A stretch of DNA of 64,000 bases from Cutaneotrichosporon cavernicola (Eukaryota > Basidiomycota > Tremellomycetes > Trichosporonales > Trichosporonaceae). The notes under the pieces are model-generated. The model did not search any database, was not told where the DNA came from, and was given only the letters and a program-made list of their open reading frames with translations. The stretch covers positions 744,001 to 808,000 of the forward strand of contig NC_083398.1 in NCBI RefSeq assembly GCF_030864355.1. The letters are read 5' to 3'. The first letter of the stretch is position 1; every line of letters begins with the position of its first letter. A program made the position numbers and the translations under genes. Shown in pieces: positions 3,057-35,207 of this stretch.

Positions 3057-6000
3057 CTACATCTCGTCGCGCAGCACCTTCTGTCTGATGACCTCGCGGC
3101 GCACGGCCCGCGATGCCGCAAGGGTCTCGCCCACCGTCTCCTGCTCCTTTTCGTCTCCAGCTTGTGCTTCCTCTTCATCTTGCGCTTCCTCTCCAGCTTG
3201 CGCTTCCTCTCCATCTTGCGCTTCATCGCCATCCTGCATGTCCACATCATCGTCCTCGTCGCTGGCAGCCGCACGCTGCTTGGCGTTGACCTTGCCCTTG
3301 CCCTTGCCCTTGCGAGTCTGCAGTGATGCGGGCGCATTCTTGGCGCTGGGGCGTGAGGGACCACTTGTCAGTCCAAGAGTCCTGGAGGTTTGACGTGTCT
3401 GACGAGTGGATGCGCCCTTCTGTGCCTCTGGTGCCATCGAGGCCGCCGACTTGGGACCGCGTCTGCGCGTACGGCCACTCCACACTGACGCGGCTGCCTG
3501 GCTTGACATGCGCGGCCTGCCCTGGCCCTGGTCGTCTTCTTCATCCTCATCGCCGTCATCCTCCGCATCAGCCCCCTTCTCATCATCATCGACCTCTTCC
3601 TCAGCACCGTCTTCGTCCTGCACCGCCGCGCCCTCCGCCTGGATGTAGGTGTAGTGGCGCCGCTTGTATGTCACCTGCGTGCTGCGGGTCAAGCAGCGCA
3701 GGGAAGGTGAGCGTGTTCGCGACTGCTCTGAAAGTGGGGACGTCGCCTGGGGCGCATTATTGTGCGAGTCGGGTTCAGGCGCACTAGACGAACGCCGGTT
3801 CGCCGCGCTTTCGCCTTTCCGGGCCGGCGACGAGCCGGGTTCAGGGGACCCGAGAGGTCTCGTTGAGGCCGCCTTCGGAGGCGGCGCGCGAAACTCCTCC
3901 TCAGACTCGAGGTCGGGTGGAAGCTCCTCGTCAGAGTCTTGCAGCTCGTCCACCTCCTCTGGCAGCTCGTCTCCTTCCTCCATGAGCTCGTCTTCCTCAA
4001 CCTCCTCTGGCTGCTCCTCCGCTCTCTGATCCAAGAGCTCGTCTTCCTCGTCTTCCTCTTCTCCCTCCTCCATGATCTCGTCGAATACCGTGCGTTGCGA
4101 AGGTCTTGGGCGCGCCTTACGCATCCGCCCCGGCGCGGACTGGCGGCGACGGAGCGGCTCGGGCGTCGACGGTTCAGGCGAGGATGGTGGCGAGGTTGGA
4201 GGTTGTGGGACATAAAAGGGTGGCACGTGGGCAAAGTCGGTGGCTCGGCGGCGGTGGTAGCGTAACATAGCGTCCGAGTCAGACTCGGCGTCGGTGTCTC
4301 TCCGTGACCGGCTTGTGGCGTCACGACGCCGGCCCGCGGCGTTAGGTGACTGACTTGGGGCGTTGCGGGGCGCATCGTCATTGCCTGGGTCTCTCAGGCG
4401 GACTGATATTGACCGCGCCCTCTCAGCGTTCTGTTGCCTGAGACGGCGCACAGGTATCTCGACGTACGCGCGGTTGACGGGCATCCGGCGCTCAAGGATG
4501 GGATGACACTCTGGCGTGCGCTGGAGATGCCGACGCTTGGGTGGCGGCTCGTCTTCCTCCTCCTCCTTGATCTCGTCGACAAGCTCATCCACCTCCTCCT
4601 CGCGCTCATCACCCCATTCCTCCTCCTCCTTGAACGCCAACTGCTCCTGTTCAGCAGCCCAGAACGCGGCCTTGTCATCCTCATAGTTCTGCCGCACCAC
4701 ATACCTGGGCGGCAAGAACATGCGTGCACGTCCCTCGATTAGCAGCCCGCGGTTCATGCGCGTCTCGCACATTGTGACTAGTCGCGAGCGCATGTGCTGC
4801 TTGTTGTACCAGGCGAGCGCCTTGGAGCGCAAACCAAACTCGCCGTAAAAGTAGGCTGCCACGTCGACGGGGTTGTCGACGCTCATGGGTACCTTCTGGA
4901 TGGTGCGCCACAGGAGGAGTGACTCGACCTCCGAGAAGAACGCCCTGCGCCCGTTGAGGCGCGAGTACTTGAAGGTCTGGCCGGCCTTCTTGCCGTGGAT
5001 CCGCGACTTGGGTGGCGCCCAGTTAGGGGGAACGATGTAGTCGCTGTCCGGGCGGAGGGGTAGGCCGTCTTCGTCCACAAGGTAAGGGTCCTGAGGCCGC
5101 AAGGGGATTTGAGGCGATGTGGAGAAGGTGTCGCGGATGAACTCCTCGTGGGACGCGTCGTCAACGAAAGGGTCGCCGTCCACGTCGAGGACGGGCTCGT
5201 TGTCGTGTCGCTCGTCATCACGCGGTTCCTCGTCGGCGTCCAAAGACAGCTCACTGTCGCGTGGCTCGGGCTGGTGGAAGTCATCAGAGGGAGGGTCGAA
5301 GTCAATTTCCATCTCTTGTTCGTTCACCACGACATCGACTTCCTTATGCGATCTTGTGATGGTCGGCCGTCGCTGGCGCGGTCCGTGCAGGATGCCTCGT
5401 GGCTCAGGCACATCCGGCACCTCACCCCGCCGCTCTGCTTCCGTGAGGTCGGCTTCGTCAGGCGGCGCGAAAGCGGTGGGGTCGTCGCGGTTCCGCCTGA
5501 CGCAGGGAGAGATGATCTGGGAAAGTGCGGGCGCGGCGGGCGCGGAGGGGCCAGGTGTGGGCGAAGCGTCGGGCTTAGCGGCCGCCTGGGCCGGCTGCTC
5601 TGGCTCGACGTCGTCTTCAATCTCCTCGTCGCGCTCCTCCTCCTCGATGCGTTCGATCTGCACCTGGACGGTGGTGTCTCCCTCATCCTCGCCTTCGTCC
5701 GCACTGAGCGCGCCCAACACCGCCTCCGCCGCAGCCATCTCAGCGCTGTCTTCAGTGCCTCTGCGCGGATGCTGGGTCCGCTCGAACTGCGAGTCCGCCA
5801 CTTCGGGAAGCGAGTCGGGGTCCTCCTCCGGTGCAGCCTCGAACTGTGACTCAGCAGCGTTAAGCTTCTCCTCGTCCTCGGAAGTCTGCTGGGACTGCGA
5901 GGCTTTACCGGGCAATTGGGGCCGCATGGTCTGTTCGAACTGCGAGTCGGCGGCGTCTGGGAACTCGGCCGCCTCGACCTGCGAGCCGGGGTCCTCGCGG

Positions 6001-31065: not shown

Positions 31066-33415
31066 CTAGGCGATGACCATGGGCGCCACGGGCGTCGGGG
31101 AGCGCTCGCGGTCACGGTCGACGCGGGACATTTCCGCGACTTGGCGACGCTTGAACTCGAGGTTGACAGCGAGGAGCCAAGCGCGGATGAGGGCCGCGTG
31201 GCGGCGGCGCATGTCCTCTGGGTTGGCAGTCGACGAGCGGCTGTCGTCCTCGAGCGAGAGGGGCGAGTCGGAGCGCGTGCGGTCCTCGAGCTCGAGGCGC
31301 TTGACACCGTGCACGAGCGTGTCGTCCGTGTGCCGCTTGACAGGAGGGTTGCGGGCGGGGGAGATGCCGCGGCGCAGCGAACGGAGTGACGGGAGCGGTG
31401 AGCTGTCGCCGTCGTGGTTGCCGATCGCGGGGAGCTTGAGGCTGGGGTGGCCCGAGCACAGGGCGCCGATCGGTATTCTTGGGCTGATGGTGTCGTCCGA
31501 CGACGTGTCGGACGCAGAGTCCTCGTCGTCGGCGACGGTCGAGCGTTCGCTGCTTTCGGTGTGGGGCGCAGCACCAAGAGGTGCAATGTGCCGGAAAGTC
31601 CGCTTGTAGAAGTCGCGAGGGGCGAGGGTCGCGGCGGGCACGGACGAGCGCGAGCGCGAACCGAGCGAGTCAAACGAGGCATAGCTCTGACCCTCGCCGT
31701 TGGCGGGCGAGACGTTCCACTCGGGGATCTGGGGGTACTGCGAGGCCGAGACGCCGCCGTAGAGCTGGCCGTGACCCATCTTCGAGGCAGCCGAGTGGCT
31801 GCCTGATCGGGGGAGGCCGGCGATGGGGCGGCGCGTGTGCTCGAGCTCGTTGACTGAGCCTGCACGCGGACGACCGTTGTCCATCCCGTCGAGTGAGGGG
31901 TAGAGCGAGCCGAGCGACACCGAGCCGTTGGGCGAGGGCGTCGACGTAGGGATACCCGGCATGCCGGCGAGGCCGAGCGATGCAAGCTCAGAAGGGTTGA
32001 AGAGATCCTCGATGGGCGAGTTCTCCGCCACTGAGAGCGGCGAGAGCGAGTTGCGCGACGACGAGGTACTCGAGCCTGAGTCGAGGCTGGGCATGCCGGC
32101 GGCGGTCTCACGACCGAGCGAGACCATGAACTGATTGAACATGGTGAGGTCCTGCTCGGTACGGATCTCGGGGATCTGGATAGGTGGGACTGAAGGAGTC
32201 TGACCGTTGTGACCGTGGCCGATGTTCGGGAGCGACGGGTATGAGAAGGGGGAGATGTTGCTCGGCAGGCCGGGGTTGCCGCCAAGCGACGGCATGTTGT
32301 ACGCGGTAGGAAGGCGGGGAGGCATAAGCGTGTTGAGGCGCGAGATCATTTCGACGTCGTAGACGGGGTCCATCTTGCGGCGCTTCATGTCCTCGATAAA
32401 GATGTCAAACGACTCCTCGTTGCCGCGCTTGACACCCTTGCCGAGGGCCTCCGACTGGAGCTGGACAGCAAGCGCCGACGACTGCTGCTGCTGGTACGCG
32501 AGCTGCTGGAGAGCAATGAGCTCACGCTGCTGGTAGGCGGCGAGCTCCTCGTGCTGCTTCCTATGGAGGGCGGCGATGACCAGCGGCGACGGTGCACCGT
32601 AGCCGTGAGAGGCCGAGGGTGGGACGCCGAGGTATTCTTTGGGCGAGTGCGGGTCGTGAGCTGACGATGAGGGCGAGAGCGAAAACGCTGGCGAGCGCTG
32701 GTGAGGAAGGCCGCTGCCATTCGACATGCGGCGGTCATCACGTGCCATAGGGTAACGCGCGTTGAAGTCGGGATCATTCGAGGTGGTGGCCTTGGACAAC
32801 TTGTGCAGCTGGTGGTGTTCCTGGGTGTGAATACGCTCGTGCTTCTTGAGGTCCTGGGGACGCTTGAATGTCTTGCCACAAACCTGGCACGGATGGGGCT
32901 TGAGAGGCGTGTGGACTGGGTTAGGTCAGCAATGGCGGCTAATGTGCGCTTAATCTCCGACGCGCGCCGAGTTCCGCGTCCGAGTGGCGGCGTCGGGCTA
33001 TGGATTATACGGACTACTCACCACGCAGGTGGGACGTGATGTGATCACGCTTGACACACTTGACACCACAGCCTTCCCATGCACAGGTCAGGCAGAGGTT
33101 GTTGGTCGATTTGCGGCCAATGTGCTTCTCGCACAGGTGCGTGTACAGGTCCTCTGGACCTGGAGCCGAGTACGTGCAGTCCTTCCACTTGCATCTGATG
33201 CCCTCGTCCAGCGGTCCCTCCTTACAAGGAGCGGCACGCTCTGGAACGTCGGGGTCTAGTTCGTCACGTTCCTCGACATCAGGAGGTGATGTGCGCGAGC
33301 GAGTGGTGGCGGTCGAATTGGGCGTGAGAGGGTCAACGCTGGACGCCGAGTCCGAGGCCGACGAGCCCGTCGGCGTACGTAGATATTGCGATGAGGGTAA
33401 GGGTGGGTATGCCAT
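31066..33415 (-). CDS. RIM101: pH-response zinc-finger transcription factor Rim101/PacC
   Basis: Transcription factor activated by proteolysis at alkaline pH; it controls pH response, ion homeostasis and cell-wall genes. Exons 33022-33415 and 31066-32915 (minus) with a 106 nt intron give 747 residues. Three C2H2 fingers are in the PacC arrangement: [13 protein letters not shown]...LYTHLCEKH, then [23 protein letters not shown] split by the intron, then [21 protein letters not shown]. Gln-rich ([13 protein letters not shown]) and Ser/Pro-rich regions follow, with an NLS-like MKRRKMDP. The C-terminal helix ([18 protein letters not shown]) may be part of the processing control. The start at 33415 is the first ATG before conserved sequence; the open frame upstream of it is leader. 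Its upstream region is rich in its own family's binding core. Confidence 0.94.
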
Positions 33416-33772
33416 GGTGTTTGGTGGGAGGCAAGGTGGGATGAGAATGAGGGAGGGTGGAGCGGGATGTGAGAGCGACGCAGGCGGCGTGCTGGGGTTG
33501 ACGTAGGCCGAGGTTGAGGATTTGGTGTTGGGGTGGGTGTCTCGGGGGCTGTTGGGCTTGAATGGGGCAGAGATAGAAGTGATAGAGAATGGTGTAGCGT
33601 ATTGAAACGACGTGAAAGAAGGAGAGTGTAGTTGGGAAAGAGTCGTAGAGAGCCGTTGATTGTTGAGGGAGTGGCGGTGCGGGTGGTGAGAGTTAGAGTA
33701 AGAGAGAGAGGAAGAGCAGGGGAAGGAGAGGAGAGGAGTAAAGGGGGTGTTCGACCAGTCTGTGGGTGGAAG

Positions 33773-34801
33773 GCCAAGAGAGTGCCAAGAGCAAAAGCCT
33801 GTTGCCAAGCTGTTCAGGGTAATCCAAGGGACCATACAAGGCACTGACAAACCACCGAACCCCATTCGAGCCTTGGGAGCCAAGCAGGCATGCAGGCACA
33901 TTGTACCCAACATCTTCCCTCTGCTCTTATGCCCATATACCAATATGCTTGTTGGGTGGTGCCAAAACTCATTTGGTAGCGCCACTCACCTTGCTATGGC
34001 TCGGATCTCGCTTGACATCCACGCCATCCTCTCCAGATCTTCATCCTCCGTGCAATCAACCAACCTGGAATCCTCACGGCCCAGCCCGTTGCTCAAGCCA
34101 ACTGGCCAGTTGATGACCTGTCGCCTACTCCCATGTTCTATCTTCAGACTCCACGCTTACGCAGCGCAGCCACGCAGGCTTACCGCACCCCATTAGTCTG
34201 CGCAGCCAGTGCTATGTATGGCGCGATTTCTCCCCGGCCCCCGTGGTCCACGTCTTCAGCCGAGGGTGTTTGTCGGACATTAATCAATCTCCGTAAATGT
34301 CAGACATATACATTCCACGTAGGGCCACGTACGCTTGGCAACCGGCGAGGCCAAGCATTGCCAAGTCTTGGCGGCTTGGCACACTTGGCGTCTAATATGG
34401 ACTGCCTTGTGAAATGAGCCATTGGGTGTGGTCTGGACACCTGATCAGGCACATCTACCGAAGATGTTGGAGCGGCACGGACTCGGCATTTTGCCGGTAC
34501 AATCGTGTGGCACCGTGCAGGGCAACAGAGCCTCCAAATGGTAGTGGCACCTGACTTGTGACTCGATGACTGAAAAACATGCACTCTGATGAAACCGGCT
34601 GGCACAGCACTAGCTCCTCTGTTTTGGGAACAACCAACACACTACATGCCAGTAGAGAGCTATAGAGAGAGCAATGTGAGAATCGGTCATCCCTGAACAA
34701 TACGGGAGCTTCTTACTAGCACAAACAGACATGACGCCAAGCACCCCTCACGCGCCAAGTGATCGGCCAGACAGCGAGGGGCAGACGTCACGTGGGCCAA
34801 G
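33773..34801. promoter_or_regulatory. Cluster of 13 GCCAAG (PacC/Rim101 core) sites upstream of RIM101
   Basis: GCCAAG occurs at 33773, 33784, 33804, 33879, 34350, 34360, 34736, 34754 and 34796. The reverse complement CTTGGC occurs at 34334, 34367, 34375 and 34384. PacC binds GCCARG; chance expectation for this hexamer on both strands in about 1 kb is about 0.5. The cluster begins about 360 bp upstream of the RIM101 ATG, with a tight triplet at 33773-33809 and a group of six at 34334-34389. Autoregulation is inferred. Confidence 0.7.
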
Positions 34802-35100
34802 ACAATGGTGATTTTATGACGGTGATGTGGATGAGACATGGTGCCGGCATGGTTGGCCAAACCATACAGTGATGACGAGTGGGAGTGGGAAGACGTAACC
34901 CCATCTTCCTTGGATCGAGACCCATAGGATAGGTGGTGTGGCGACCATCTGTGATTTGCCTCAAGCAAAAGCCCAACTGGAACAGATTGAGGAACCATTC
35001 GGCATGCGCAACGCGACATCTTGTGAAGTCGCCATTTCAGTTCGGCAGACTCTGTCTGCATGCACCACATCAAAACCATACAAAAGCGAGACAAAATGAG

Positions 35101-35207
35101 GGCTTCTCCGGGACTCGAACCCGGGTCAAGCACAGTCGTGTTCACGACGGGACAAGCCAAAGCTTACGTAACCCGAAGCGCTTATCTTACCCCTGGACCA
35201 AGAAGCC
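35101..35207 (-). tRNA. tRNA-Pro(CGG), intron-containing
   Basis: On the minus strand, acceptor arms GGCTTCT and AGAAGCC pair over 7 bp. The T arm is CCGGG-TTCGAGT-CCCGG. The anticodon stem AGCGC pairs with GTGCT across an intron, and the loop reads TTCGGG before the intron, giving anticodon CGG (Pro, CCG codon). The intron is about 37 nt, inserted after position 37, and contains CCCG able to pair with the anticodon, as expected for fungal pre-tRNA. CCA is not encoded. Confidence 0.9.

What the first reader, a model, noticed from the sequence alone, without database searches (positions are those of the whole stretch)
33773..34801. Thirteen GCCAAG sites upstream of RIM101: likely autoregulation
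The PacC/Rim101 core GCCAAG occurs 13 times on both strands in about 1 kb, against about 0.5 expected. It forms two tight groups: three sites in 37 bp and six in 56 bp. The nearest coding target is RIM101 itself, whose encoded fingers bind this core in other fungi. Such density suggests a feedback switch or a pH-dependent repressor array.
Basis: partly seen in the sequence, partly recalled or inferred. Interest (0 to 1): 0.8.

Follow-up and report, generated by a model that had tools for sequence, protein, structure and literature searches.

The report
pH regulator's own binding-site array
The stretch of DNA in front of a yeast's acid/alkali control gene carries thirteen copies of the short sequence that this kind of control protein is known to bind, so the protein very probably controls its own gene, as it is known to do in related fungi.

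Summary
[quoted passage not shown] The expected number is 0.9-1.2, not 0.5, but 13 is still far outside chance: 0 of 2000 shuffles reach it, and the maximum is 8 in 198 kb of background from the same genome. GCCAAG is the region's most enriched hexamer, and the flanks are no more alike than chance, so the array is not a tandem duplication. Of two ENA genes (a known Rim101/PacC target), one has a significant cluster (6 in 1 kb) and the other a weak one (3); BRO1 and chitin synthase genes show none. No other pol II promoter target is evident. Best reading: a directly autoregulated RIM101 promoter, more likely positive than negative feedback, as stated for Cryptococcus neoformans. This is a dense, well-resolved example of a known kind of feedback. 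Binding, sign and conservation in relatives could not be tested here.

The parts
33773..33884 (.). Proximal group: four GCCAAG (33773, 33784, 33804, 33879), all on the + strand, -358 to -469 from the RIM101 ATG
34334..34389 (.). Middle group: six GCCAAG in 56 bp on both strands (34334-, 34350+, 34360+, 34367-, 34375-, 34384-), including the palindrome GCCAAGTCTTGGC (34360-34372); centres 16, 10, 7, 8, 9 bp apart; -919 to -974
   Evidence: with 5 of 46 genome-wide mixed-orientation triple matches it is the richest of 34 such loci
34736..34801 (.). Distal group: three GCCAAG (34736, 34754, 34796), all on the + strand, -1321 to -1386
33416..33815 (-). C-rich, G-poor stretch on the gene strand just upstream of the ATG (C 41-53%, G 5-16% per 100 nt; no ATG in the last 419 nt): probable 5' leader / core promoter
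   Evidence: the function is inference
33022..33415 (-). RIM101 exon 1 (ATG at 33415), fingers 1 and 2
32916..33021 (-). RIM101 intron (GTGAGT...CAG)
   Evidence: the spliced protein is 100% identical to C. cavernicola CcaverHIS019_0603080
31066..32915 (-). RIM101 exon 2, finger 3 and C-terminal part; 747 aa protein in all
35100..35207 (-). tRNA-Pro(CGG) gene with 37-nt intron; bounds the intergenic region
   Evidence: ARAGORN, eukaryotic intron settings; not found by the default ARAGORN or Rfam runs

Best explanation
The 1.03 kb upstream of RIM101 is a homotypic cluster of Rim101/PacC binding sites through which the Rim101 protein directly regulates its own gene. Inferred mechanism: at neutral/alkaline pH the processed, nuclear Rim101 occupies the proximal, middle and distal groups and raises RIM101 transcription (positive feedback), so that the regulator is supplied as long as the pH signal lasts. 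The many near-adjacent sites in the middle group would make occupancy steep with Rim101 concentration. Shown here: the sites, their statistics, the identity of the gene, and the close match of fingers 2 and 3 with C. neoformans Rim101. Inferred: binding, sign and cooperativity. The confidence given is for direct autoregulation of either sign; positive sign alone is about 0.5.
For: 13 sites against 0.9-1.2 expected; 0 of 2000 shuffles; maximum 8 in 198 kb of background. The most enriched hexamer of the region is exactly the PacC core, and GCCAGG is absent. Flanks of the 13 sites agree at 25-26%, i.e. chance, so the hexamers were gained or kept one by one; a true tandem cluster elsewhere (L015) has 89%. 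The gene is RIM101/PacC, and all 12 C2H2 ligands are invariant in 10 of 10 aligned basidiomycete proteins, C. neoformans Rim101 among them. Of two ENA-type ATPase genes (TIGR01523 over cut-off) one (C4) has 6 sites in 457 bp, 6 in the first 1 kb upstream of the predicted ATG (P 0.0014); the other (C8) has 3 in 108 bp, 3 in 1 kb (P 0.12). A. nidulans enaA and enaB have 5 and 6 GCCAAG in 1 kb (PMC7459330, passages). C. neoformans: 'Rim101 induces its own transcription' (PMC4393102, passages). N. crassa PAC-3 binds its own promoter at alkaline pH (PMC4996508, passages). Y. lipolytica Rim101 stimulates its own transcription (PMC8265631, passages).
Against: No binding or expression data exist here. 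The hexamer is short and common (24,030 in the genome), and the window edges fit the sites, so the P values are after the fact. The ENA support is mixed: C8 alone is not significant; three of the six C4 sites are a CTGCCAAG tandem, so they are not independent; and a non-ENA P-type ATPase (L044) has four sites in about 230 bp just beyond 1.5 kb upstream, while L043 has three within 1.5 kb. Upstream of the two BRO1-domain genes (Rim20/Bro1 type) there are only 3 and 1 sites in 2 kb. 0 of 7 chitin synthase loci have a listed site triple in the 3 kb before the match (by eye). In A. nidulans the feedback is negative, by full-length PacC (PMC4832277, section 6 read). No related species could be examined.
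Confidence: 0.75

Rival explanations
1. Negative autoregulation (the other sign of the best explanation, included in its confidence): full-length or processed Rim101 binds the array and represses RIM101, and alkaline induction comes from relief of repression, as in A. nidulans pacC.
For: A. nidulans: pacC is repressed by PacC72 and alkaline-expressed by derepression (PMC4832277, section 6 read). The four proximal sites lie close to the likely leader, where bound protein could block transcription (position; the argument is inference).
Against: The nearer relative C. neoformans is described as self-inducing (PMC4393102, passages). GCCAAG clusters also stand upstream of an ENA gene here, and PacC activates enaA and enaB in A. 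nidulans (PMC7459330, passages).
Confidence: 0.25
2. The sites serve another regulator that reads GCCAAG (or a longer motif containing it), and RIM101 is only one of its targets.
For: GCCAAG-rich stretches also lie near genes with no link to Rim101 known to me, e.g. L028 beside an MFS transporter exon (9 sites in 1029 bp), L010 beside a sugar transporter (7), L009 (7) and L022 (7).
Against: The hexamer equals the published PacC/Rim101 core, fingers 2 and 3 are strongly conserved across basidiomycete Rim101, and one of two ENA genes has a significant cluster. The 13 flanks show no shared longer motif.
Confidence: 0.13
3. Chance or neutral accumulation (base composition, tandem duplication) with no regulatory role.
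For: The hexamer is frequent (1.19 per kb genome-wide), and at least one other cluster is a plain tandem repeat (L015, flank identity 0.89; L026 is at 0.56).
Against: 0 of 2000 shuffles reach 13; maximum 8 in 198 kb; flanks unrelated; one search finds only two two-copy direct repeats and one inverted pair in 33400-35110.
Confidence: 0.05

Closest known systems
Autoregulated RIM101 of Cryptococcus neoformans (PMC4393102, passages seen; the primary paper it cites, O'Meara 2014, is not held)
   Same: Same class of fungi, orthologous gene; the protein is stated to induce its own transcription.
   Different: Number and layout of GCCAAG in its promoter were not seen here; no comparison of promoters was possible.
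pac-3 of Neurospora crassa (PMC4996508, passages seen)
   Same: The factor binds its own promoter, at alkaline pH only, at sites of the same core (BGCCVAGV); 9 of the 13 sites here fit that longer form (read by eye).
   Different: Ascomycete; the number of its sites was not read.
pacC of Aspergillus nidulans (PMC4832277, section 6 read)
   Same: Gene regulated by its own product in response to pH.
   Different: Feedback is negative and by the unprocessed protein; the site count in pacC was not read.
enaA / enaB promoters of A. nidulans (PMC7459330, passages seen)
   Same: Several GCCAAG (5 and 6 in 1 kb) in genes that need PacC; the two ENA genes of this genome have 6 and 3 in 1 kb.
   Different: Target genes, not the regulator; RIM101 here has 10 in the first 1 kb and 13 in 1029 bp.

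Membership tests
Rim101/PacC transcription factor (the encoded protein) | Three C2H2 fingers of the PacC type with conserved ligands | tested here: met
   All 12 Cys/His ligands (C75, C80, H93, H98, C111, C116, H129, H133, C141, C144, H157, H161) are invariant in 10 of 10 aligned proteins. Pfam finds fingers 1 and 3 over cut-off; the double-finger model is below its cut-off.
Rim101/PacC transcription factor (the encoded protein) | Full-length similarity to proteins named PacC/Rim101 | tested here: met
   Trichosporon asahii 'transcription factor PacC', 62% identity over 99%; C. neoformans 'pacC/RIM101', 40% over 98%. NCBIfam (a prokaryote library) matched none of the 3 proteins given.
Rim101/PacC transcription factor (the encoded protein) | pH-dependent processing by the Rim pathway | not testable with these tools
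   Needs protein work; two BRO1-domain genes of Rim20/Bro1 type are present in the genome
Rim101-autoregulated promoter | Core sites GCCAAG in excess upstream of the gene | tested here: met
   13 in 1029 bp; 10 in the first 1 kb
Rim101-autoregulated promoter | Other known Rim101/PacC targets of the same genome carry the same sites in clusters | tested here: inconclusive
   ENA C4: 6 in 1 kb (P 0.0014, three of them in tandem); ENA C8: 3 in 1 kb (P 0.12). In the 3 kb fetched before the first matched exon: ENA 9 and 7; five other P-type ATPases 2, 3, 0, 5, 6 (within 1.5 kb: ENA 7 and 4; others 0, 1, 0, 3, 1). BRO1 genes 3 and 1 in 2 kb; chitin synthases 0 of 7 with a listed triple.
Rim101-autoregulated promoter | Occupancy by Rim101 in vivo | not testable with these tools
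   ChIP needed
Rim101-autoregulated promoter | Expression of RIM101 depends on Rim101 | not testable with these tools
   Expression data needed
Rim101-autoregulated promoter | Array kept in related species | not testable with these tools
   By their descriptions the DNA collections with scans left are bacterial, archaeal, viral, phage or plasmid, and the metagenome cap is 0; none was scanned for this. Relatives were seen as proteins only.

The most novel reading that the evidence does not exclude
In this lineage the strength of Rim101 control is written as site number: RIM101 itself has the densest array found, a capsule-type mannosyltransferase and an ENA gene come next, and the closely packed middle group makes RIM101 a steep, memory-like positive-feedback switch that sets the order in which the alkaline programme turns on. 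It would also make a CMT1/CAP59-type glycosyltransferase a direct Rim101 target, whereas in C. neoformans such capsule genes depend on Rim101 without having its sites (PMC2824755, passages).
Probability: 0.15. Interest if true: 0.5.

Novelty: new member of a known kind. Interest (0 to 1): 0.33.

Why it matters
It gives a precise cis-element map for likely feedback on the master alkaline-pH regulator in the Trichosporonales. Two searches listed no paper on Rim101 in Trichosporon or Cutaneotrichosporon, judged by title and start of abstract (15 of 16 papers listed, 10 of 391 listed; open-licence PMC papers only), so this is weak evidence of a gap. The groups are compact, so mutating them one by one would test directly whether the feedback is positive or negative, a point on which the species studied disagree.

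Tried and rejected
Considered and dropped. (1) Tandem duplication as the source of the array: flank identity is at chance and no repeat family covers the sites. (2) A second coding gene in the interval: the 130-aa frame 34687-35079 (-) has flat codon-position GC (0.55/0.50/0.54) and no Pfam match. (3) A longer Rim101 protein starting at 33913, which would put the proximal group inside coding sequence: the frame is open, but the database protein (747 aa) starts at 33415 and the Tremellomycete relatives aligned start with the same M-x-YPxLP type of N-terminus. (4) A preferred inverted-pair spacing: among the 50 of 98 genome-wide GCCAAG-N0..12-CTTGGC places that were listed, spacers 0 (8), 12 (7), 1, 3 and 11 (5 each) are commonest and none clearly stands out. 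(5) Chitin synthase and BRO1 genes as further Rim101-type clusters: none found. (6) A solved PacC/Rim101 structure: 92 PDB sequences match the fingers, and none of the 60 listed is named PacC or Rim101.

Limits. That should bias the background upward, against the finding. Only 12 of the 33 other mixed-triple loci and 7 same-strand ones were examined for density, and the same-strand list shows 100 of 161 places, so a denser array elsewhere is not excluded. The twentieth locus (L017) was aimed off its target.

Full report
WHAT IS THERE. The two-exon gene at 33415-31066 on the minus strand encodes a 747-aa protein identical to CcaverHIS019_0603080 of Cutaneotrichosporon cavernicola (Basidiomycota, Tremellomycetes, Trichosporonales), with named PacC/Rim101 relatives in Trichosporon asahii and Cryptococcus neoformans. 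All 12 zinc ligands of its three C2H2 fingers are invariant in 10 of 10 aligned basidiomycete proteins. From residue 100 to 174 (fingers 2 and 3) it matches C. neoformans at 70 of 75 positions by eye; finger 1 is more variable. Upstream lie 1.7 kb with no convincing coding frame, then a tRNA-Pro(CGG) gene with an intron (35100-35207, minus strand), then a MaoC/hydratase gene on the same strand. RIM101 is therefore the only protein gene whose promoter the interval can be, as far as the sequence shows.

THE SITES. Thirteen GCCAAG hexamers stand at -358 to -1386 from the RIM101 ATG. There is a proximal group of four in one orientation, a middle group of six in 56 bp in both orientations with centres 7-16 bp apart and one perfect palindrome (GCCAAGTCTTGGC), and a distal group of three.

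CHANCE. Shuffles of the region keeping dinucleotides give 0.92, with 0 of 2000 reaching 13 and a maximum of 5. In 198,320 bp of background the highest of 3126 overlapping windows holds 8. Among the hexamers present in the region GCCAAG is the most enriched (P 8e-10; the next, at 4e-5, overlaps it). The allied core GCCAGG is absent. The flanks of the sites agree at 25-26%, so the array did not arise by copying one unit; L015, a real tandem cluster of the same hexamer, shows 89%. These P values are after the fact, because the region edges fit the sites. With the fitted negative binomial (5e-7 per window) and about 20,000 such windows in the genome, a window like this would be expected by chance about 0.01 times genome-wide (my arithmetic, overlap ignored).

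GENOME CONTEXT. Mixed-orientation site triples (spacers up to 30 bp) give 17 + 16 + 13 matches in the genome, forming 34 loci. The RIM101 array has 5 of these 46 matches, more than any other locus, and is one of two loci with all three arrangements. Twenty loci were fetched: 12 of the 33 other mixed ones, 7 same-strand triples, and L017, which missed its aim. The best count in 1029 bp among them was 10 (L019), then 9 (L028). L019 faces a CAP59/CMT1-type mannosyltransferase gene: the Pfam match is in one exon, the exon before it and its ATG are my own prediction, and 9 sites lie within 1 kb upstream of that ATG. This was found after the fact, from the cluster list.

TARGETS CHOSEN BEFORE LOOKING. 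Three classes were tested. ENA Na/K ATPases: two genes pass the family cut-off. One (C4) has 6 sites in the first 1 kb upstream of the predicted ATG (P 0.0014), three of them in a short tandem; the other (C8) has 3 (P 0.12). In the 3 kb before the first matched exon the two ENA genes have 9 and 7 sites, and five other P-type ATPases have 2, 3, 0, 5 and 6; within 1.5 kb the counts are 7 and 4 against 0, 1, 0, 3 and 1. One of these controls (L044) has four sites in about 230 bp just beyond 1.5 kb. So ENA leans the expected way, but not cleanly. A. nidulans enaA and enaB have 5 and 6 in 1 kb (PMC7459330, passages). BRO1-domain genes: 3 and 1 in 2 kb, nothing special. Chitin synthases: 0 of 7 loci have a listed triple in the 3 kb before the match (by eye; one search lists 100 of 161 places, but those cover contigs C1-C4, where all 7 loci lie).

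MECHANISM. Shown: sites, gene identity, statistics. Inferred: Rim101 binds the array and regulates its own gene. For the sign, the nearest studied relative is C. neoformans, where 'Rim101 induces its own transcription' (PMC4393102, passages, citing O'Meara 2014, which is not held). Y. lipolytica Rim101 also stimulates its own transcription (PMC8265631, passages). N. crassa PAC-3 binds its own promoter only at alkaline pH (PMC4996508, passages). A. nidulans is the counter-case: full-length PacC represses pacC (PMC4832277, section 6). I therefore favour positive feedback at alkaline pH (about 0.5), with negative feedback as the main rival (0.25). The C-rich, ATG-free 400 nt next to the start codon look like the leader. 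On that guess the proximal group flanks the transcription start, and the middle and distal groups act as upstream elements.

VERDICT. Autoregulation of RIM101/pacC is already known in several fungi; what is new is this instance and its layout. The array is a good target for a direct test of the sign of the feedback.

Noticed in passing
L019 (G000:C4:2810300-2820200), sites 4416-5393, predicted gene ATG at 4144 on the minus strand: A CAP59/CMT1-type mannosyltransferase gene has 9 GCCAAG in the 1 kb upstream of its predicted start and 10 in 1029 bp, with unrelated flanks (0.26): a possible direct Rim101 target related to capsule or cell-surface glycans.
   Followed up: partly
L038 (G000:C4:1086600-1089600), sites 666-1122: ENA-type ATPase gene with six GCCAAG in 457 bp upstream of its predicted ATG, three of them in a CTGCCAAG tandem.
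   Followed up: yes
L044 (G000:C4:1935190-1938190), sites 1526-1759: Four GCCAAG in about 230 bp upstream of a P-type ATPase gene that is not ENA by the family cut-off; taken as a control, it shows that such small clusters are not confined to expected targets.
   Followed up: no
L028 (G000:C1:664900-674800), sites 4720-5735: Nine GCCAAG in 1029 bp beside an MFS transporter exon; the gene served by the cluster was not identified.
   Followed up: partly
window 33940-33944 (+) and 34421-34425 (-): Two CCAAT boxes stand among the GCCAAG groups upstream of RIM101. In C. neoformans HapX is required for full RIM101 induction (PMC4393102, passages), so an iron input next to the pH input is possible.
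   Followed up: no
window 35100-35207 (-): tRNA-Pro(CGG) with a 37-nt intron, missed by default ARAGORN and by Rfam at gathering score, found with eukaryotic intron settings.
   Followed up: yes
window 33014-33913 (-): The reading frame of RIM101 exon 1 stays open for 166 codons upstream of the accepted ATG, with in-frame ATGs at -498, -486, -450 and -420; relatives give no support for an extended protein.
   Followed up: partly
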